Positions 1 through 64,000 of a DNA stretch of 64,000 nucleotides are shown one piece after another. Every line of letters begins with the position of its first letter. The stretch's first letter is position 1. Source of the stretch: Melampsora larici-populina 98AG31 (lineage: Eukaryota > Basidiomycota > Pucciniomycetes > Pucciniales > Melampsoraceae); contig NW_006768853.1 of assembly GCF_000204055.1 (NCBI RefSeq), positions 20,177 through 84,176 on the forward strand, given 5' to 3'. The notes under the pieces are model-generated. The model was not told the DNA's origin. It ran no database searches and saw only the letters and a program-made list of their open reading frames with translations. Made by a program: the position numbers and the translations under genes.

Positions 1-2316
1 ACAGTTTCACCGTGCCCAAACAAGCTCGAAAAGCTAGCAGCTAAATAATCAAAGTCGAATTGGAGCAGTCAGTAATCTGTCATTTAGATAGAGGCTCCTA
101 AGATGAATAACTGGATGTACCTGCGTCATACGTGTCCTCTTTCTTGATGCTTTGCAAAGCGTGAGTGTTGCCTGGGCCAGAAGATAAACCAAACGATAAC
201 CCTTGGCCAAACCCAGAGTGAGAGTGCAAGCCTATCACACACGGTCGATACAAAGAGAGAAATAAACAAACAGTCAAAGCAAGAAAGAAAGAAAGAAAGA
301 CAAAACAGGTCAGATTGAGACAGGTTTTAAGCTAAGCGAGGAGATCATAATCGGAAGCTTACCTGGTAGAGAAATAAACAAACAGTCAAAGCAAGAAAGA
401 AAGAAAGACAAAACAGGTCAGATTGAGACAGGTTTTAAGCTAAGCGAGGAGATCATAATCGGAAGCTTACCTGGTAGAGAAATAAACAAACAGTCAAAGC
501 AAGAAAGAAAGAAAGACAAAACAGGTCAGATTGAGACAGGTTTTAAGCTCAGTGAGGAGATCATAATCGGAAGCTTACCTGGTTCATCCTTGATGTGTAT
601 CTTGAAATTTTGAGACGAAGTCCCTTTGGTAGGTTCCACCGGATCAGAAGACAGCACTATCGTGATCCCTTTGCCTACTCCAGAGGGCGAGGCTACAAAT
701 GAACCCCTGGTTAATGATGATGTTCATACGGATGGAATCAAAAGGAACGTACTGGGTTCAAGTTTAATTTTTTTCTTGTCTTCTGCATTGGCGATAAAGA
801 AAGATGGTCAGAGAAGTATGTCAAGATAATGACAGGAAGACTTTGGAGCTTACCTTGACCCTGACCTTGTTTATCTTCAGACCTACCGATATCTGCAAAG
901 ATCGCAGATCTCTTGGAACTAGACGCTTTTTGAAATAAAAGTCGGGCAGGTGATTCAAAGAAATTCTCGGTAGAACCTCCAGATTTCTTGAAGGTGGGGG
1001 ATAAATCGAGATTCAAATGAGACGATTGCATCTTAACTCGGTCGTCAACTTTCAATCCCTTGTGGAACACTCGGGATTTCTTGATAATAGCGAGGTATTC
1101 GTAGGTCCGGGGGGGAATTTCACGAGTAGCCATTCCGGCTTGCTGAAATGAAATCAAACCATGGGATTGGATATGATATCGAAGGAAAAAGGGTATATAC
1201 AGAAGAAATTACTGACCACGCCCTTTGCCCAGACCCATGCCCCGTTCCACGTCATGCGGTACTGGAAACTCGGATCCCATGGGCAAACCAATATGGCCCC
1301 ATCGCCGGAGGTCCCTTTTTGGGATTGCTCATGGAAGATCTGAGCCGTTAATTCGTGAAGCGCAATGCGCTTGCGCGCATCCTATCACACGACGAGCTCA
1401 GGTTCGTGAAAATGAAAAAGAACAAAAAGGATATGAGGGGTGGTAAAAAGAGAAATCACGAACCTCCAACTCTTTGGTGAGTTCCCCCACCTGCGCGTCT
1501 GCGCCGGTTGAGCCGCTCGCCGAAGCAATGAACTGCTTGGCGGCGCTGGTCTAAAAGCAAGAGGAGAAGAACGAAAAGATGAATACATGACAGAAAAAGA
1601 ATGACAGTTAAGGACAAACCTGAGCAACCTTTTTGGCCTGTTCCTTGGGATTTTCAGTATAAATCGTCACCGAGCCCTTGTGCTTGGTGGCTTTGGCAAG
1701 CAAATCTACAAAGCTCTGCCAGGTAAGACAGTCCACAAGGAATACCTTTTCTCGACCCACCTGACCCATCCATCTCAAACGCGGAGCAAGGTCGCTTTTG
1801 AGAACCATGTGGCGCATTCCGGGTTCGTACTCCTCACATATGTCGCCACACATGCCTTTGAAGTCGTTTAGCGACTTCCCAAACAAACACTTCACCAAAT
1901 CAATGACGTTACCTTGATTGAACATCTTTGATTCAATCAAGTTGTAGCGGACAGCCGCGCTAGCAGCACTTTTGCGAGTCCTGCTAGCTACCTTAATCAA
2001 CGTCGGTTGTTCAGCTGCAACTTCCATTTCCGTATGGATTTTGAACTTGACCTGGACAATCATTTCGTTTCGTTGGTCAAATTGAATCCGAGGCACGGTG
2101 CCGATCCGGTACAGCGGATTTTGTTGGCTACATGTTGCAGGAGCGTCGTCACCGGTTTTATTAGACGGCTCATCAAAAACTGAAGAAAATATAAGGGGGT
2201 TCAGTTTAGGCAAATCAACACTGTATAAGCAAGGAGTTGCACATACGTGCATTCATGTGGCCTTGGACCGCGGGCACGTCTGAGTCATTTGGAACGGGGG
2301 TTTGATGGTTAGACAT
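1..2316 (-). CDS. unrecognised multi-exon gene, 3' part beyond the left edge
   Basis: I do not recognise this protein. The chosen start is the ATG at 2316 (begins MSNHQTPVPND); from there the exons 2316-2247, 2179-1620, 1550-1464, 1381-1217 and 1142-854 join with consistent phases (1, 0, 0, 0, 1) at GT..AG borders. Further exons lie near 805-773, 722-579 and 227-137, and the gene continues off the edge. The first half looks globular and contains a K/R-rich stretch (KVASRTRKSAASAAVRYN); the middle is Trp/aromatic-rich (CPWDPSFQYRMTWNGAWVW). The later exons are Gly/Ser-rich and carry three psi-K-x-E-like motifs (IKLEP, IKDEP, IKKED), which is the pattern of SUMO acceptor sites. That pattern plus lack of a signal peptide hints at a nuclear protein, which is inference only. 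The join from the ~790 exon to the ~720 exon is uncertain (donor GTTCCT would keep frame). Confidence 0.6.
228..578 (-). repeat. tandemly triplicated intron with 108-bp units
   Basis: Read on the minus strand, the intron following the exon that ends at 579 consists of near-identical 108-bp units. Unit borders fall exactly at CCAG|GTAAGC (donors at 578, 470 and 362). Each unit therefore begins with a consensus donor and ends with a pyrimidine-rich tract and acceptor (TTATTTCTCTACCAG). The last unit ends at a different acceptor (GTGTGATAG) next to the following exon. A GAAA microsatellite near 282-300 varies between units. The exon on each side joins in phase 1 whether the region is removed as one intron or in three steps. 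Confidence 0.8.
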
Positions 2317-2645
2317 TTTATTGTGTTGAATCGAGAAGATGTCAAGCTGCTCATGCAAATGGTATTAGGAAAATGATAAAAAAACGATGGGATTAGAAAA
2401 AAAAATCCAAAAAAAAAGTCAGGTTCAGAAAGAAGAAAAACAGAGAGAAACAAACACACCGAAAACAAGACAAAGGTGATGTGTCAAGAAAAGATTTAAA
2501 GCAGGTTTATGATGGCAGAAATTCGAAACCTGCGAGATTAGCGAAGACAAATTGGTCAGAAGATTGAGACAAAGCCAGGTCAAAGATAAAGATTGTACTT
2601 TGTGAGATCGATGAGTTAAACAGAATAGTTGGGCAAAAGCCCAAC

Positions 2646-2653
2646 TATTTATA
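2646..2653 (-). promoter_or_regulatory. TATA-like box upstream of the left-edge gene
   Basis: The minus strand reads TATAAATA here, about 330 bases upstream of the chosen ATG at 2316. The A/C-rich leader between the two holds no long ORF. Position and orientation fit a core promoter, but no transcript start is known. Confidence 0.35.
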
Positions 2654-5600
2654 CCTTTTGGGTGTCATCAAACCCAACCCCGTTTTCTTAAACGCAACCG
2701 CCTTTTCCGTTATGAAATCATATGGGCTCATGAGGTCATATGAGGTCATAACCCCATTTTTCATATGTTGGTGACCATAATAAAATCAAAAGATATGAAT
2801 TCGTGGTTGAAATCTTCGGCATCGTTTGATAGAATCGCTGTTCTTCTGTCATTCATAAAAAAGAGGCCAAGCATGAATCAACTTCATAATGGAACTCTTG
2901 CGGTCAAAATAAACACAGAAACCGTGAAAGAAGAAACCGTGAAAGAAATCTTCGGTAAGAATTGATTAATTGTTGATGGAATTCCATCGTTCTATAGAAA
3001 CGTCGTCCTTTCTTTATTGCAACAAAAATACTGAAAGAAACAATCAACATTGTTATCGAAGTCTTGAAGATAAACCAAACACATACCCTCTTTGCTTGTT
3101 ATTGAAATTTTGATGAAGGTCAGGATCCGTGTTCCATGGGACGCCTATGTTGATTGAAGTTCTCATGATGAGTATCTTATGATTGAAATCTTTGGTAATG
3201 AAGAAGCAGAAACATGTTTTTACGTACCATTCGAAAGGATGAAAGCCCCAAAATGTCAAAAAGAGGGTCGAAGGCTGAAGCGGCCTGTGGAGGATTTGAC
3301 GGTGGTTGAGGTTGGTCGGTATAAGAACCGGAGGCCTGTTCAGACTTTCGAAACTTTCGTGAATGGAAATTGATGCTTGGAAGCATTACAAGACAGCTGA
3401 AGACAGCTATGATCAACATAATTTTGCGGAATCAAATTAACGTTTAGGCCTGTGAAAACAAAAAAAAAAAGAGTTTTGGACGACAGATTAAACCCCAGTT
3501 AAAACTTGGAAACACACAACCCCGCGAAATTTACCAATAGTTCTTACAACAGCTGTATGTACACAACACTTCCGTGGCAGGTATGGTGGCAGGTATGCCA
3601 TCTTTGAATGACCAGAATTGCCCAAAGCTGAAGGCTCAAGACTCAGTTTGCAGAATAATAGTCCAACAAATTCTCAACAAACATGATCATGAATCAGTTG
3701 AATTCCTTCTTTGAACCTTTCAAACACCACCAAGAAGTAAGTGACATGTGCAAACCAATCTCACCAAGCTTGACATAAAGAATTCCAAGCCAAATCACTT
3801 GGCTTTGTCAGACAGGCATCTGTCAAGCTTTTTGTGACTGTACATAGTCCTGTCATTCTCAAAAAAGCTTGTCCAAGTTTTCCTGCAAAACTCAAGCAGT
3901 TTGGTATGGAATTTTCGGCAAGCTTTGGAAGAACAACAGTACTTTAGTGAAACTCCATGAGAGCTGGAAAGAAATGACTAGTGATGTAATCAAGAATAAC
4001 TTATCAAACCCAAAGATACCAACCAAACCATAACAATCACAATGTAAGACCAAATAAACCCAATGATATTTCTCGGGAAGAAAAAATAGAAGCAAAGGAT
4101 TTTCTGTGGTAAAAACAAGACCAAGAGCTTGAGACCAAATCCCAAGAGAAAAAGATAGAAGGCATATACATAGGGGTATGTAGGCAAAACAGGATTGAAA
4201 GAAAGGCCTCAAGATTGCTTTTGAATGTGCTTTGTGATTCATGATTCAAGTGAGAGTAGTGAACTTTATCCATTACCAATTATCTTCATTTGTTCAGTAT
4301 AAGTGTCTTTGAATCTTGATGAATCACAAACAAAAATTGTTGTATTGAATGTAGATCTAACCTAAATGAATGGTTCTTACAGTGTGAAATATAAATCACC
4401 TCAAATCCAGAAAAGAATCCATTGGCATCACCACAAATGCTGGTATATAAAGGAAGAGACAGAGGTAAGGCTTCATAGTATATTGATCAAGCAGTAAAGG
4501 TTTGGGTTGACTGTCAAACAAGAAATTTGCTTAGGATTCGCTAAGATCTTAAAGGTTTGTCTCACCATAAGCTTAAGCTTAAGCCCTTCTTCCAAAACAG
4601 CCACATCTACTTAAGCTTAGGGCCTATACACAGACTTTGGCCCAAGACCAGCAGGATTTTTGAGCAAGTCCTTTTCTGAGGGCTCTAGAATGTTGTAAAA
4701 GCTTGCAATACATTCATCATGGGTTCTTACAAACCTTAATGTACATACACTTGTGCCACTGGTATCACCACTTTACTTGAGCAATTTGACAAATTTGGAT
4801 GTTAAGGTATTGTGGATCTGGGCCATACTCAGTGTGTGGGACTGCAAGTGTGCTGAACTATTCAAACTCACTATACCGGCTGTATTTGTGAGGAGTGCAC
4901 TGTTGGACATACTGTTAATCAAGGATATGATAAGAAATGTAAAGTGTGGTCTTCATGTGGTACACTTTCAGTACTCAAGACCTTACACCTAAGCTCCAAG
5001 AGCACTTCAAAGAAGTAATATTGTAAAATTACCCTGTGTCCGCATTGCAGATACTTTTTAAATTATAAAACATTACACCTTGAATCTAGTTTCAAAGATT
5101 CACAAAACCATTACAAAAAATATATAATATAACAATGACAACTTGACAGTCTAGTTTCAAAGACCCATATGAATGACAAATCACAATACTTATGAAATAA
5201 TAATGTAAAAAAACCTTGGAAGGATGATACAATAAGAAAGCATAAAAAGAACTTATTAAGAATGATAAGAAGAAAACTCACAGGTCAAGGAAGATAGTAT
5301 AGAAAAAATAATTACTAGACTATCAAAAGTTCACAAACCAAGAAGGACTTTGGGTAAGGAAAATATTAGGTAAGAAACTAATAAATAAATAAAATACTAT
5401 TACCTACAAAAGATAGCACCAAAGAAAATATCAGATGACATGCTTCCTTAGATTTTGGAAAGTCTTAAGAAAACACCAGCCAGAGGACTCTCTTGGCCAC
5501 AGACATAATTAAGCAACACCAGCAAAAAATATTGCTGAAGTATCAAATTAACTATACAACTAGGTTTCAAGAAAGGTATAAAAGCTATGGATTCTTGCCA

Positions 5601-58691: not shown

Positions 58692-59507
58692 CACTACACC
58701 AAATGTAATCTTTACCGGGCGGTAAAGAAAACTACTGACATAGAAAAGTCCTGAGGCAACAGGAAGAGAGCTAAAAATCTGAAAAAATATATACCTTGTT
58801 CCTAGATGTTGGGGCGTCATGATGAGTATTTTTTTGTATTTTACACACAGATATTGGTTTATGTACTAACGATAAACACTGAAAATCATCAAAAACTCAC
58901 ATGTAACAATACCTGAAATATGGGTCATGAGTATGAAGACAATATTTTGTGGTCTAAAAACTCCAATAACTTTTGCAATTCTGCTCCAAATAACTCGATT
59001 TTTGGTTCATTCAAAAGCTGAACTATTCTTCTTCACACTTCATAATGTTAGTAAGGTGCTATCTAGTCATTTAAACACTCTACATATGTTCAAACAGTTC
59101 TGCATGAATAGCTCTGTAGGATCTTTTTTAGACCAGCTACAGATGTGATGTCTCAATGAAAAATGTAGAGGAAAGGCTCACCTTTTTAATGCACTTTGAA
59201 TCAAGTGATTTGATTCAGAACTGCAAAAGTTATTGATGTTTGAAGATTCCAAAATCCTATCTTCAAAGTCAAGGGCCAAATTTCAGGTATTGTTACAGGT
59301 GGGTTTTTGATGATTCTCAGCCTTTATTGTTAGTACATTAACCAATATATGTGTGTAAAATACAAAAAAATACTCGTCATGACGCCCCAACGTTTAGGAA
59401 CAAGGTGCATATTTTTTCAGATTTTTAGCTCTCTTCCTGTTGCCTCAGGACTTTTCTATGTCAGTAGTTTTCTTTACCGCCCGGTAAAGATGACATTTTG
59501 TGTAGTG
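58692..59507. mobile_element. CACTA-type MITE with about 235-bp inverted repeats
   Basis: The left arm (58692-about 58925) and right arm (about 59275-59507) are inverted copies with few mismatches. Both termini read CACTACAC inward, and the flanks carry the 3-bp duplication ACA (58689-58691 and 59508-59510), the CACTA/EnSpm pattern. Each arm holds the palindrome-rich CTTTACCGGGCGGTAAAG close to its end. The 350-base centre has no gene. The 3' ORF starting at 59349 reads out of the arm by chance. Confidence 0.82.
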
Positions 59508-59510
59508 ACA

Positions 59511-60082
59511 GGAACTGGGTTAAAAATAAGGATGCCACTATTTAACGCCCCCTCGGCGAACATCCGGCGCCCCTCGGGTTTTGACAAATACCCGCGCGGC
59601 CCGTTGATACCCGATGATTTTCAGTGCATATCTCACACCCTCAGACTCCAGGGGCTCCTTGAGGGCTCCCTAAGAGGGCACAACTTCACAGAAGCGCCCT
59701 CAAATTACCTATTTGATGCCCCTTCCATCCTTGAAGGGGCATCAAAGAACAATAAAACATTTGACAGGGCGTCAAAGCACTTTGACGCCCGGCCCGGCCC
59801 CATTCCTTCACGGCCTGTGTGTTCAATGCCTCCAATGGAAGCATTGATACACATACTCATAAGGACCCATCCCACTCTTGAAGTCTTGAAGTGTCTTTCC
59901 TCGCCTGTTTTTCATTTTTTTCTTGTGATCACCACCTCTTTCAAACCACATCAACATACTTCAATCAACCAACCCCGCAACCTCACATCACCTAATACAC
60001 CCACTACCTACCAAATCCTATTATTAACTCCGCTACAACTCACCAAATCTCCCTCGAAGTACCTCGAACCTTGTTCCACAGT
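59511..60082. other. 5' flank of the MULE transposase with hairpins
   Basis: GC-richer block (59540-59830) with two strong hairpins, then a CA/CT-rich leader up to the ATG at 60083. No gene is seen. The block may be the terminal region of the MULE, but its mirror would lie beyond the right edge. Confidence 0.4.
59712..59790. repeat. two perfect inverted repeats upstream of the MULE transposase
   Basis: TTTGATGCCCCTT (59712-59724) pairs with AAGGGGCATCAAA (59734-59746) around a 9-base loop. GGGCGTCAAAG (59767-59777) pairs with CTTTGACGCCC (59780-59790) around a 2-base loop. The stems share the G(A/C)(T/C)GCCC-type core in opposite orientation. Confidence 0.7.
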
Positions 60083-63000
60083 ATGGTACACATACCCCGG
60101 CCTCCCCCACCTACATCAAATCCCACTGTACACGTAAATCGCATCCCCAACCCTGACTCAATTCAATCGAATCAGGATCATCCAGTCCCCGCTCCAGTTC
60201 CTCCGAGCGGATATGTTCCACCCAGTGAATATCCTGGATATTCTCGTGGTCATCATCCACCACCTTCTTTTCACCCACCTCCGTCCTTCCCTCTTTCTGG
60301 CGTTCATCACCATGGTCATAACGCTCACGCTCAACATCTATTTCCACCCGGCTTGTACCCACCTCCGTCGTACCCACCTCTCTACCCATCATCGTACCCA
60401 CCATCTTCATATCCATCATCTTCTGGCATTTCGTACCCGGCCACATCCTATTCGGATTCAGGTCCAGCCAGCATGATTGCGTATGCACATGCTGGGCATC
60501 ACTTTCAATCCGATTTGAACCATACCCAACACCCTCACCACTCTCCTGCTGCTCATTTCGATCATCGTGCCTGGCAACCGTTGTACTCTCAACCGAATCC
60601 ATGTTTGTACTCAATTGATCCATATGCTTACCACCATACCACTCGTGATAAGCATATTAAGGATCATAACGCGACTCCGACTCACAAAACCAACACCAAT
60701 ACTACTACCGCTCCCCCTCATACACCTAATTCTGACGAGCCTTCCGCTACTCCTACCGAAACAACCACCTTTGCTGCGACTCCAACTACATCAACCGGAG
60801 ATTTGGAACCTAATCAACTGGAAAACGAGAACAACTTAGACCTCATTCAGTTGGCATTAGATAACCATGAAAGAGACGCCGACTGGCCTCCAATTGGTAT
60901 GTAGAAGATGATTCACCTTGCTACCTTCCGTTATCTGTACACTGATACTATACACATCATTTCCTCATCAGGAGCCACCCCTGTTCGCTTGCTTGAAGGA
61001 CCTAGAACTGGAAAGGAGTTTATTGAGATGGAAAACGGATTGATGTACCTTAAAGCTGTCGCCCGATATCAAGGATACGCTGTCGCCATCAAAAGTCATA
61101 AAACCTTCAACCAACAGACCATCCGCCTTTATCTACGATGTTCTCTGGGTCACAAAGTCCAATCCGTTGCTCGAATTTGGTCTTCATCTTCCAAGAAGAC
61201 GGGCTGTTCTTTTGAGGTGTCACTCAACTACCGAACTCATCTTGACCGCTGGATTGTGTGGCAAGACACTAAGAATCCAGTTAAACTCACTCACAATCAT
61301 GCTCCCTTCGAAAACCCTCACAATATGTCTATTTATTGCCGATTCAACACCGCCAATTCACAAACAATTGATGACCTTTCTTCAGCAGGCTGCCGCGCGT
61401 CGGTAATCAGGGCACTCATTGATGTAGAACCAGGATCCCAGCCCTTAGTACGGGATATTAACAATGTTCGATACCGTCGGCGGGAGACTTGGCTCAATGG
61501 TCGCACACCGGTGCAAGGATTGTTTGATTTGATTGTGGATAGTCAATGGGCACACCGCACCTTAACTGCATTGAATGGGACCCTGCTTAACCTTTTCTTC
61601 GCTAGTCCTTCTGGAATTCGTTTGGCTCGACGTTTCCCAACGGTTCTCAGTTTGGATTGCACGTACAAGACGAACCGTTTCAATCTGCCGCTTTTACACA
61701 TCGTTGGAACCACCAATACTCACCGATCATTTACCGTTGCTATGTGTTTTTTGACAAACGAAAAACAGGATCAGTATGAGTGGGCCTTGTCCCAACTCAA
61801 AGAAATCATTTTCCAGGATGAGAATCAAACCACAACCGTCAAGCTACCCGAAACTTTTGCGACCGATGCTGAACCTGCCCTCTACAATGCTATCTCTACC
61901 GTTTTCCCTGATTCAACACACATCCTTTGTGTTTGGCACATCAACATCAATGTGGCGAAGAACTGCAAGAACAAATTCTCAGAACCGGAGTGGACCGAAT
62001 TCATGAAACTATGGAATACTTTCATTGCCTCTACTTCACAAGCCAACTACGATACAAATCTCGAAGCTGTCAGCAAAATGGCCAAAGTTCACGAAGTCTT
62101 TGCTTACCTTGAAGGCACTTGGCTCAATAAGACCGATAAATTTGTGACATTATTCACCTCCAAGTCTCCTCACTTTGGGAATTCATCAACTTCACGTACA
62201 GAAGGCAGTCATTTTAGAGCGAAAAGATTTCTTGACGGGCAAAACAATGACTTTATCACCTGCTTCAATGCCTTCAAACGATTTGAAGATCATCAAACCA
62301 GCGAAATCAATGTCTTGGTCGGCATCGAGAAGACAAAGACACTCCAAGGCCTTCCTGCTTTCTTCAAAGAGTTAAACGGCGTGGTCTCACACTTCGCCCT
62401 CAAAAAAATGAAATTACAGTACGATTTATTGCCCGACGCGCTCAACAAACCATGCACTCACACGTTTAGAGGTGCTTGGGGTCTCCCATGTGCACATGAG
62501 CTCGCTGCAGCGCGAGATAACGTGGACTATCTACCAACTGACTCAATCCACATGCAGTGGAAACTCGAGATGGAACTTGCGCCGCATACACACGAAGGGC
62601 TAATTGAAGCGGCAAGAATCAAGTTTGATAACTTACTTCAGTTACCTGAACATACACTTCGTAAGATTTTTACCGAAATCGGACTCCTCGAAACTGGACT
62701 TTTCTCTCTTGTACCCATTCTGGACGCCGAAGTCAAAAGGGACAATAAAGGCCGTCCTCGAGCTATCAATGGCAAAATTAAACGGGCCGCTTCTCCTGAT
62801 ACAAGATGGAAATCGGACATGGAACTCGCTGAGGCCTCGAAACGGCCTCGTGTCAGCAAGTGCAGCCTGTGTTTGAAACCCGGTCACAACATTACCACCT
62901 GTCCGCTTCGCGCCAGTCAGACTTCTGCGCCTTCCAGGTCATCTGGAACACCATCGAATTCCAAACGAAGTGCAATTCCCAAACGTACATTGAAAATGGT

Positions 63001-64000
63001 ATTGACCGAAGAAGAAGAATTACTTGACGATTTTTATGACATGATTGAAGATAAGCCTATAGAGGACGTTGTAGACCCTGCCTCACCTGAATCTTATGAT
63101 CTTTGTGAATTTGATTCTGGCGTTTCACAAGACTCAGAAGAGGGTGAAGAATCAGAAGATCAAGAGGGGGAAGATCTATGCGAATTCTGTGACGATCCCC
63201 TTCCCGCTTTCCCTTCGAAAAAGCTTATTAGCCTGAAAGCTCTGCTCTTGGCTATCCCTAGAGTGGTCAAAGGAAACCCTTTGTCGGTCAGTGTTTTTGC
63301 GTTTGACCTTTTGAAATGTCCGCTTCTGCTCACGTTGTGTGGACTATTTTGAACAGTGGACTCAAACGGCTGAGTATTGTCAATTACATCGAGCCGAATG
63401 TAAGACTATTCCACTTGGCGTCAGCAAAGGCTGGCCTACGGTTATAGATTTTGATGGTTTGCAGAAGCAAGTACACTCGCGATTTTACAACCACTTGACA
63501 TCTAACACTTATTAATCAACTGCTACATAGCCGTATCAAGCAGCATACTCAGATATTGAGCAATATCATTAGCAAAACGGAACCATCAGTTTATTTCGAT
63601 TACTCTAAGAAACATAAAGGGAAGCGTATGGACAGCGTGACCGATCTAGGAACATTTGAGGTGGAGCAACCAGGATAGTGAGTACTCCACCCCACCCTTG
63701 AGTGTTTTCTTGGTATCTGATCTATTTGCTTGGTCCCATCAGTTATGGATATCAAGGTTATCAAGTGTTTGTAAGAACCCTGGAGGCTATCTTCATCAAT
63801 GATCCAAATTTGCCACATCACCTTGACTTTCGCAAAGCCGCACCTCTGACTCCGGAATCATTTATTCGAAAAGTCCTGATTCCTGAACTTGCTACGTGTT
63901 TAATTGCTGAGGATATGAACTTGGAACGTACGGACCCTCAAGTGAAGGAGACCTTGGAAATCAGCCGGGAATATGGTGTTGTAGTTTTTCCACTGTCTGA
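60083..64000 (+). CDS. MULE transposase with C-terminal RTC4-like domain, truncated by the window edge
   Basis: Exons 60083-60896, 60972-63286, 63357-63470, 63541-63677 and 63743-beyond 64000 join in phases 1, 0, 0 and 2. The first 270 residues are a Pro/His/Ser/Tyr-rich disordered region. A FAR1-like N-domain follows (GKEFIEMENGLMYLKAVARY). The MULE catalytic core has LSLDCTYKTNRFNLPLLHIVG (first Asp), FATDAEPALYNAI (second Asp), and SRTEGSHFRAKRF (Glu). A SWIM-like zinc finger (CTHTFRGAWGLPCAHEL) and a CCHC knuckle (CSLCLKPGHNITTC) come next, then an acidic linker. From LCEFCDDPLPAFPSKKL on, the sequence matches an RTC4-like domain: YCQLHRAE, PLGVSKGWPTVIDFDGLQ, LGTFEVEQPGYYGYQGYQVF, SREYGVVVFPLS. 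The start of this domain is in the same uninterrupted exon as the transposase. No stop is present in the exons, so the copy may be active. The end lies beyond the window. Confidence 0.85.

What the first reader, a model, noticed from the sequence alone, without database searches (positions are those of the whole stretch)
60083..64000. MULE transposase fused to an RTC4-like domain
The sequence shows one exon (60972-63286) that encodes the DDE core, SWIM finger, CCHC knuckle and then the first zinc-binding-like part of an RTC4-like domain (CEFCDDPLP..PS.KL). Later exons continue that domain in phase up to YGVVVFP. RTC4 is known as a fungal nuclear protein tied to telomere capping phenotypes. As a transposase tail it could direct insertion site choice or tether the element to chromatin; that is inference. 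If the fusion recurs in many copies, it is an undescribed transposase architecture.
Basis: partly seen in the sequence, partly recalled or inferred. Interest (0 to 1): 0.78.

Follow-up and report, generated by a model that had tools for sequence, protein, structure and literature searches.

The report
Jumping gene carrying telomere-linked RTC4 domain
In a rust-like fungal genome, a large family of cut-and-paste jumping genes makes one long protein that joins the DNA-cutting transposase to RTC4, a fungal domain tied to telomere upkeep in yeast, and often to a ubiquitin-removing enzyme, so RTC4 "gene family expansions" reported in rusts may really be jumping genes.

Summary
The fusion is real and recurrent. 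The window copy is an intact 5,754-bp Mutator-like element (window 59530 to 65283, 1.3 kb past the window end) with 21-bp inverted ends, an 8-bp target duplication and an empty site elsewhere in the genome. In this genome 91 of 122 RTC4 matches lie 1.6-5.9 kb (median 1.9) behind a MULE match on the same strand; within 6 kb no MULE match lay on the opposite strand or downstream. Of 19 RTC4-bearing elements with both ends found, 18 have exact 8/9-bp duplications. Median dN/dS is 0.28 (RTC4) and 0.25 (OTU). RTC4-less MULE-OTU relatives exist here and in Puccinia striiformis, so RTC4 was probably added to a MULE-OTU transposase. No paper holding both RTC4 and transposase was found. RTC4's role in the element is inferred, not shown; restriction to telomere ends is unlikely.

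The parts
59530..64000 (+). the transposable element; its 3' end lies outside the window at window-scale 65283 (contig C89:85459), total 5754 bp
   Evidence: terminal inverted repeats found by blastn and the repeat finder; exact 8-bp TSD; paralogous empty site on contig C11
59522..59529 (.). left copy of the 8-bp target site duplication AAAAATAA; right copy directly after the element
   Evidence: 22 of 24 elements have exact 8- or 9-bp duplications, swapped flanks 2 of 552
59530..59550 (+). 5' terminal inverted repeat GGATGCCACTATTTAACGCCC; partner at L009 5940-5960 (outside the window), 90% complementary
   Evidence: the motif GGATNNCACTATTT occurs 239 times in the genome against 14 for the reversed control
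60083..60896 (+). exon 1: Pro/His/Ser-rich N-terminus, ATG at 60083
   Evidence: open frame, GT-AG intron 60897-60971 of 75 bp, in-phase splice
60972..63286 (+). exon 2: MULE DDE core (PF10551 at residues 496-597; D500, D570, E682 and CVWH assigned by eye), degenerate SWIM-like motif near 62453, CCHC-like knuckle near 62861, first zinc pair of RTC4 (CEFC, near 63179)
63287..63356 (+). GT-AG intron, 70 bp, phase 0
63357..63466 (+). exon 3: second zinc pair of RTC4 (YCQLH) and start of the RTC4 core
63467..63530 (+).
   Evidence: agrees with the phase-2 intron at this place in most other copies
63531..63677 (+). exon 4: RTC4 core
63678..63742 (+). GT-AG intron, 65 bp, phase 2
63743..64000 (+). 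exon 5: rest of RTC4 (to YGVVVFP near 63972); continues beyond the window as the OTU-type protease (window-scale about 64203-64620 for the Cys and His boxes), stop codon at 64776-64778
   Evidence: PF14474 match C89:83920-84165

Best explanation
This is an intact, potentially autonomous cut-and-paste Mutator-like (MULE) DNA transposon whose single protein carries two extra modules behind the DDE transposase: a complete RTC4 domain (putative zinc-binding N-part plus helical core) and an OTU-type ubiquitin protease. Shown: one reading frame, inside the terminal repeats, many copies, 8/9-bp duplications, an empty site, low dN/dS on both added domains. Inferred: the DDE core cuts and pastes the element; the OTU module strips ubiquitin from the transposase or from proteins at the cut; and RTC4, added to an older MULE-OTU transposase, docks the complex onto host DNA-end or chromatin proteins so that ends are handled in the element's favour. 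Likelihood of the description: about 0.93; of this particular role for RTC4: about 0.3.
For: Pfam MULE and RTC4 both above cut-off in one spliced protein. 91 of 122 RTC4 matches are behind a MULE match, same strand, median 1.87 kb; within 6 kb none had one on the opposite strand or downstream. On contigs C1-C18, 17 of 52 RTC4 matches are bracketed by an inward pair of the terminal motif, 0.26 expected. Exact 8/9-bp duplications in 22 of 24 elements, 18 of the 19 that carry RTC4; swapped flanks 2 of 552. Empty site on C11, 121 of 122 bases across the junction. OTU: 19 of 32 distinct places examined, GNCG in 19, His box in 18; profile match to the OTU-like tails of RTC4-less MULEs, probability 99.9%, one of which passes PF02338; the model of P0001 matches OTU proteases and the IS256-family ISCth4 transposase by Foldseek. 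Median dN/dS 0.28 for RTC4 and 0.25 for OTU. MULE-OTU without RTC4 in 5 loci here and in P. striiformis P0038-P0041. Gene calls from other, mostly unnamed sources: P0001 holds PF10551 and PF14474 plus the OTU-like tail, though without the SWIM-like, knuckle and CxxC part; P0036 reads the same exon 2 into CPFC; P0002, Melampsora americana, holds SWIM-like, knuckle-like and RTC4 parts but no MULE core in its gene model.
Against: No transcript was seen. The OTU of the window copy matches no Pfam model on its own. A clade of copies has no OTU, so OTU is dispensable; RTC4-less MULEs exist, so RTC4 is dispensable for MULEs in general. No solved structure was found to resemble the RTC4 model (inconclusive), so its role cannot be read from its fold. 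The ISCth4 superposition is poor (TM-score 0.30 to the target). Six of the 32 distinct places had in-frame stops in the aligned part. 31 of 122 RTC4 matches had no MULE partner in the printed list; 35 of 52 RTC4 matches on C1-C18 were not bracketed by exact motif pairs. Of six copies fetched, L042 showed only a mismatched left end and no right end, and C1:2172915 (L043) no duplication. The left side of the empty site is only 22 bp, and none was found for L044.
Confidence: 0.85

Rival explanations
1. RTC4 acts as a targeting or tethering module: it binds a chromatin protein and steers insertion to particular chromatin.
For: Yeast Rtc4 is in cytosol and nucleus and genetically linked to telomere maintenance (PMC6162548, passages). 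Target duplications are AT-rich (87.5%).
Against: Copies are spread through the interior of megabase contigs, not confined to contig ends. No fixed target motif beyond AT richness is evident by eye. Telomere repeats are barely assembled, so telomere bias itself could not be measured. AT-richness was not compared with RTC4-less relatives.
Confidence: 0.3
2. RTC4 and OTU form a counter-defence module: they stabilise the transposase or undo host silencing or checkpoint marks.
For: OTU or Ulp1 domains ride on Ginger1, Ulp1 on Mutator and OTU on Helitron proteins, and a role in repair after transposition was proposed (PMC2836005, passages). At C64 a UCH-type ubiquitin protease, not a MULE core, precedes the CCHC-RTC4-OTU part; the near-identical C47 locus was read only 1.5 kb upstream.
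Against: OTU-less RTC4 copies form their own clade. No activity test.
Confidence: 0.3
3. RTC4 is passive baggage: a host exon captured by chance and carried along.
For: MULEs are known to pick up gene pieces (recalled, not tested here).
Against: Median dN/dS 0.28 among diverged copies without stops, CxxC/CxxH in 29 of 32 distinct places, the same intron trio in 26 of 32.
Confidence: 0.07
4. The RTC4-OTU part is a separate host gene that happens to lie next to the MULE, joined only by gene prediction.
For: Introns separate the later parts.
Against: The first zinc pair of RTC4 is in the same exon as the MULE core. Terminal repeats and target duplications enclose both. The arrangement repeats at 91 places.
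Confidence: 0.03

Closest known systems
DNA transposons with a protease tail (Ulp1 in Mutator of hydra, lancelet and plants; OTU or Ulp1 in Ginger1; OTU in Helitron; PMC2836005, passages)
   Same: a transposon protein that also carries a ubiquitin- or SUMO-type cysteine protease
   Different: an RTC4 domain between transposase and protease; a MULE with OTU instead of Ulp1; rust-like fungal host
Muta1 MULE of Aedes aegypti (PMC5225508, passages)
   Same: MULE DDE core related to IS256; 8- or 9-bp target duplications
   Different: Muta1 transposase is 504 residues with a predicted zinc domain; no RTC4 or OTU is mentioned in the passages read
Fungal host RTC4 genes (P0003-P0031, chiefly Mortierellomycotina; Ganoderma P0032; yeast Rtc4, PMC6162548, passages)
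   Same: the same domain with the CxxC...CxxH part and PF14474 core (30-41% identity to the element copies among the printed best rows)
   Different: no MULE domain among the 30 proteins found
Puccinia striiformis MULE proteins P0038-P0041 and L085 of this genome
   Same: MULE core plus OTU-like tail in one protein, homologous to the window family
   Different: no RTC4 in between
'RTC4 protein family' larger in Puccinia novopanici (45) than in P. sorghi (15), PMC9370660, passages
   Same: the same domain family in rust fungi, multi-copy
   Different: read there as DNA-damage-response proteins helping the pathogen; the word transposase does not occur in its main text. That those copies are transposons is my prediction, untested

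Membership tests
Mutator-like element (MULE) | MULE DDE transposase domain (PF10551) | tested here: met
   84.6 bits, cut-off 27.6; P0001 model matches IS256-family ISCth4, E 9e-6 but TM-score only 0.30
Mutator-like element (MULE) | terminal inverted repeats | tested here: met
   21-bp arms, 90% complementary, 5712 bp between them; L040 has 122-bp arms at 94%; L042 lacked a recognisable right end
Mutator-like element (MULE) | 8- to 9-bp target site duplication (as for Muta1, PMC5225508) | tested here: met
   exact in 22 of 24 elements, own copy included
Mutator-like element (MULE) | transposition activity | not testable with these tools
   only indirect: intact frame and a 99% identical empty site
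SWIM finger | CxC...CxH and a SWIM model match | tested here: not met
   CTHTF...CAH in the window copy; no SWIM family among matches up to E 10. Position and spacing resemble a SWIM motif (motif recalled)
CCHC zinc knuckle | CX2CX4HX4C and Pfam cut-off | tested here: inconclusive
   CSLCLKPGHNITTC fits; zf-CCHC_2 16 bits, cut-off 27
RTC4 domain (PF14474) | Pfam match above cut-off | tested here: met
   55.4 bits, cut-off 23.7, profile 11-120 of 121
RTC4 domain (PF14474) | N-terminal CxxC and CxxH shared with host RTC4 | tested here: met
   CEFC...CQLH; 29 of 32 distinct places by pattern
RTC4 domain (PF14474) | telomere-capping related function | not testable with these tools
   the name rests on yeast genetics; even there the function is called unclear (PMC6162548)
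OTU cysteine protease | Pfam OTU match above cut-off | tested here: not met
   no OTU match in the window copy up to E 10; the homologous domain of RTC4-less L085 passes PF02338, 26.2 bits, cut-off 23.3
OTU cysteine protease | catalytic Cys and His boxes | tested here: met
   GNCG in 19 of 19 OTU-bearing distinct places, His box in 18 of 19
OTU cysteine protease | OTU fold | tested here: met
   on the relative P0001, not the window copy: Foldseek to viral OTU, DUBA, OTUD3 and A20, probability 1.00, E 1e-4 to 1e-3
stand-alone host RTC4 gene | no transposase, not bounded by transposon ends | tested here: not met

The most novel reading that the evidence does not exclude
RTC4 is a transposon module in rusts: taken once from a fungal host gene into a MULE-OTU transposase, spread in it to some ninety or more places, and then passed on to other gene kinds (a UCH-CCHC-RTC4-OTU gene at C64, probably also C47, and a gene with a different N-terminus at C1 and C45 whose C45 RTC4 is sister to the window copy). 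There, with ubiquitin proteases, it manipulates the host's DNA-end or damage response. The reported RTC4 'gene family' growth of rust pathogens is this transposon family.
Probability: 0.35. Interest if true: 0.8.

Novelty: new variant of a known kind. Interest (0 to 1): 0.62.

Why it matters
It is a recurrent transposase architecture that my searches did not find described, joining a transposon to a host domain whose function is unclear. About ninety MULE-RTC4 places, with OTU-less and RTC4-less sister families in the same genome, allow the roles of these domains to be compared. It also suggests that an RTC4 family enlargement, published as a DNA-damage-response trait of rust pathogens, may be an unmasked transposon family; rust annotations and enrichment analyses should be checked for this.

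Tried and rejected
Host RTC4 in this genome: a search of the own genome with P0003 was asked twelve times and never answered. Instead: of the 30 best RTC4 loci, 26 have a MULE partner or MULE-core homology upstream; L015 and L022 show only the knuckle (28 bits) and L022 proved to be the UCH kind; L029 and L033 have another N-terminus. L033 nests inside the element clade; L029 was not in the tree but its frames are nearly the same as L033's. A separate host copy is not excluded.
Full report
What is there. The window is C89:20177-84176 of a 98.3-Mb, 243-contig genome without a name. At 60083 starts a gene of five exons. My first model gave 1471 aa; comparing it with other copies showed that the second RTC4 intron is better read as a GC-AG intron at 63467-63530, giving 1473 aa without a stop. 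The gene runs out of the window and stops at window-scale 64776-64778.

The element. The end GGATGCCACTATTTAACGCCC and its 90% complementary partner, with 5712 bp between them, enclose the MULE, RTC4 and OTU parts. The 8 bp outside, AAAAATAA, are repeated directly after the other end. A joined-flank query matches contig C11:1287650-1287771 across the junction at 121 of 122 bases, with the 8 bp once. The right side agrees over 303 bp (99.3%), the left side only over 22 bp, because a dispersed foldback repeat (58692-59507, arms of 352 bp) lies just to the left. No such site was found for a second element, L044.

It recurs. PF14474 has 122 matches and PF10551 154 (150 printed; 150 of 191 candidates scored, so lower bounds). 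91 of 122 RTC4 matches have a MULE match 1602-5948 bp upstream on the same strand; within 6 kb none has one on the opposite strand or downstream. Seen from the MULE side, 75 of 92 strong MULE matches but only 18 of 58 lower-ranked ones have RTC4 downstream. The terminal motif GGATNNCACTATTT occurs 239 times against 14 for the reversed control. 100 places are listed; I used the 99 on C1-C18: 33 inward pairs under 10 kb. 17 of them enclose an RTC4 match (17 of 52 RTC4 matches on these contigs, 0.26 expected from random placement), and 14 are 0.95-1.73 kb long without MULE or RTC4 matches, as expected of non-autonomous derivatives. Exact 8- or 9-bp duplications flank 22 of 24 elements checked (18 of 19 with RTC4, 4 of 5 short ones); swapped flanks match in 2 of 552 (19 of 24 before three ends were moved by one base). 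L042 was left out because only a mismatched left end was found. The exact duplications are 87.5% A or T; the window is about 60%.

Gene structure and selection. I aligned the window protein to 36 loci, that is 32 distinct places of the 122 (the 30 best RTC4 matches, the window copy and L042). In 26 of 32 the RTC4 part has the same intron trio (phase 0 or 1, then 2, then 2, further predicted introns allowed); L011, L013, L017, L018, L029 and L033 differ. Six of the 32 have in-frame stops in the aligned part. CxxC...CxxH fits 29 of 32; GNCG is in 19 of 19 OTU-bearing places and the His box in 18 of 19; 13 have no OTU. Median Nei-Gojobori dN/dS, for pairs with dS between 0.1 and 2, is 0.275 for the RTC4 core exon (167 of 435 pairs, 30 of 32 places) and 0.252 for OTU (48 of 136 pairs, 17 of 32 places); frames with stops were dropped, which biases towards constraint.

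Is the tail an OTU protease? In the window copy no Pfam model says so. But the family profile aligns with the tails of RTC4-less MULEs (L085, P0038-P0041) at probability 99.9%, and L085, a single 1035-aa frame, passes PF02338. The model of the relative P0001 (mean pLDDT 57.8; block means of the tail 44-92, mostly above 70; its RTC4 part poor) matches OTU proteases in the PDB; its core matches the IS256-family ISCth4 transposase, with poor superposition.

Where did RTC4 come from? A search with the RTC4 part of P0003 gave 30 fungal proteins, most of them from Mortierellomycotina, also Zychaea and Ganoderma: 29 with PF14474 precomputed, none with a MULE domain. In a tree of 35 rows, host and element rows separate on a branch with support 84/89; long branches make the root and the Ganoderma position unsure. 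OTU-less copies form one clade of six, plus L040 and L033 elsewhere (10 of 30 host proteins used; six copies with stops, and L029 and L041, left out). MULE-OTU proteins without RTC4 are in Puccinia striiformis (P0038-P0041: no PF14474 up to E 1; P0001 against P0039: core 37% identity, OTU part E 1e-8) and in five loci of this genome, where PF02338 lies 1.38-1.40 kb behind a MULE match that has no RTC4. The simplest order is MULE-OTU first, RTC4 added in between, OTU lost in one or more branches; this is inference.

Outside this genome. A search with residues 1020-1471 gave 3 proteins among 5022 candidates: P0001 (MULE core, RTC4 core and OTU-like tail, but without the stretch from SWIM-like motif to CxxC), P0002 (Melampsora americana, no MULE core in its gene model) and P0003 (a host protein). 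P0036 reads through the same exon 2 into CPFC and on. P0001 is 968 aa on a 3159-base contig and runs through two RTC4 intron sites, which hints at an RNA-derived contig; I could not see the contig.

How it may work. The DDE core, ends and duplications make cut-and-paste transposition of the MULE type the obvious engine. In other transposons OTU and Ulp1 domains were proposed to act in repair during or after transposition (PMC2836005, passages). Rtc4 of yeast is found in nucleus and cytosol, is linked genetically to telomere maintenance, has an unclear function, and its protein level falls in zinc deficiency (PMC6162548, passages), which would fit a zinc-binding domain. I therefore favour a docking module for DNA-end or chromatin proteins; targeting and counter-defence remain open. 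Most copies on the long contigs lie far inside them, which argues against restriction to telomere ends.

What follows. PMC9370660 (passages) reports 45 RTC4 proteins in P. novopanici and 15 in P. sorghi and suggests that they help the pathogen against DNA damage. In the present genome 91 of 122 RTC4 matches sit behind MULE cores, so that reading should be re-tested. Two further gene kinds carry RTC4 here: UCH-CCHC-RTC4-OTU at C64 (UCH 31.0 bits, cut-off 23.9) and a gene with an unmatched N-terminus at C1 and C45, which suggests that the module moves between genes.

Noticed in passing
L022 (C64:401399-404641) with L094:3838-5199; similar locus L015 (C47): A reading frame with a UCH-type ubiquitin protease (PF00443, above cut-off) continues into CCHC, RTC4 and OTU without a MULE core: two ubiquitin proteases and RTC4 in one gene. 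L094 also holds a duplication of the UCH part (2296-3090 and 3838 onward). The upstream part of L015 was not fetched.
   Followed up: partly
L029 (C1:1695819) and L033 (C45:430479): RTC4 joined to a different N-terminus without Pfam match, no MULE or OTU homology in the 3.2 kb held; the RTC4 of L033 is sister to the window copy in the tree (97/87), so RTC4 seems to have moved into another gene kind.
   Followed up: partly
L085 (C79:204000-208800): Single-frame 1035-aa MULE-OTU protein without RTC4, a likely ancestral architecture; five such loci by MULE/OTU distance.
   Followed up: partly
window 58692-59507: Foldback element with 352-bp arms (85% complementary) directly beside the MULE insertion; its outer arm matches 37 other places at 95-100% among the 40 matches scored.
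   Followed up: no
contigs C1-C17, e.g. C1:2845270-2846997, C5:418109-419836, C9:1906372-1908099: 14 short (0.95-1.73 kb) pairs of the same terminal motif without MULE or RTC4 matches, three of them 1728 bp long: probable non-autonomous derivatives of the family.
   Followed up: partly
C94:220506-221083: Long TTAGGG array, one of very few assembled telomere-type repeats in this genome.
   Followed up: no
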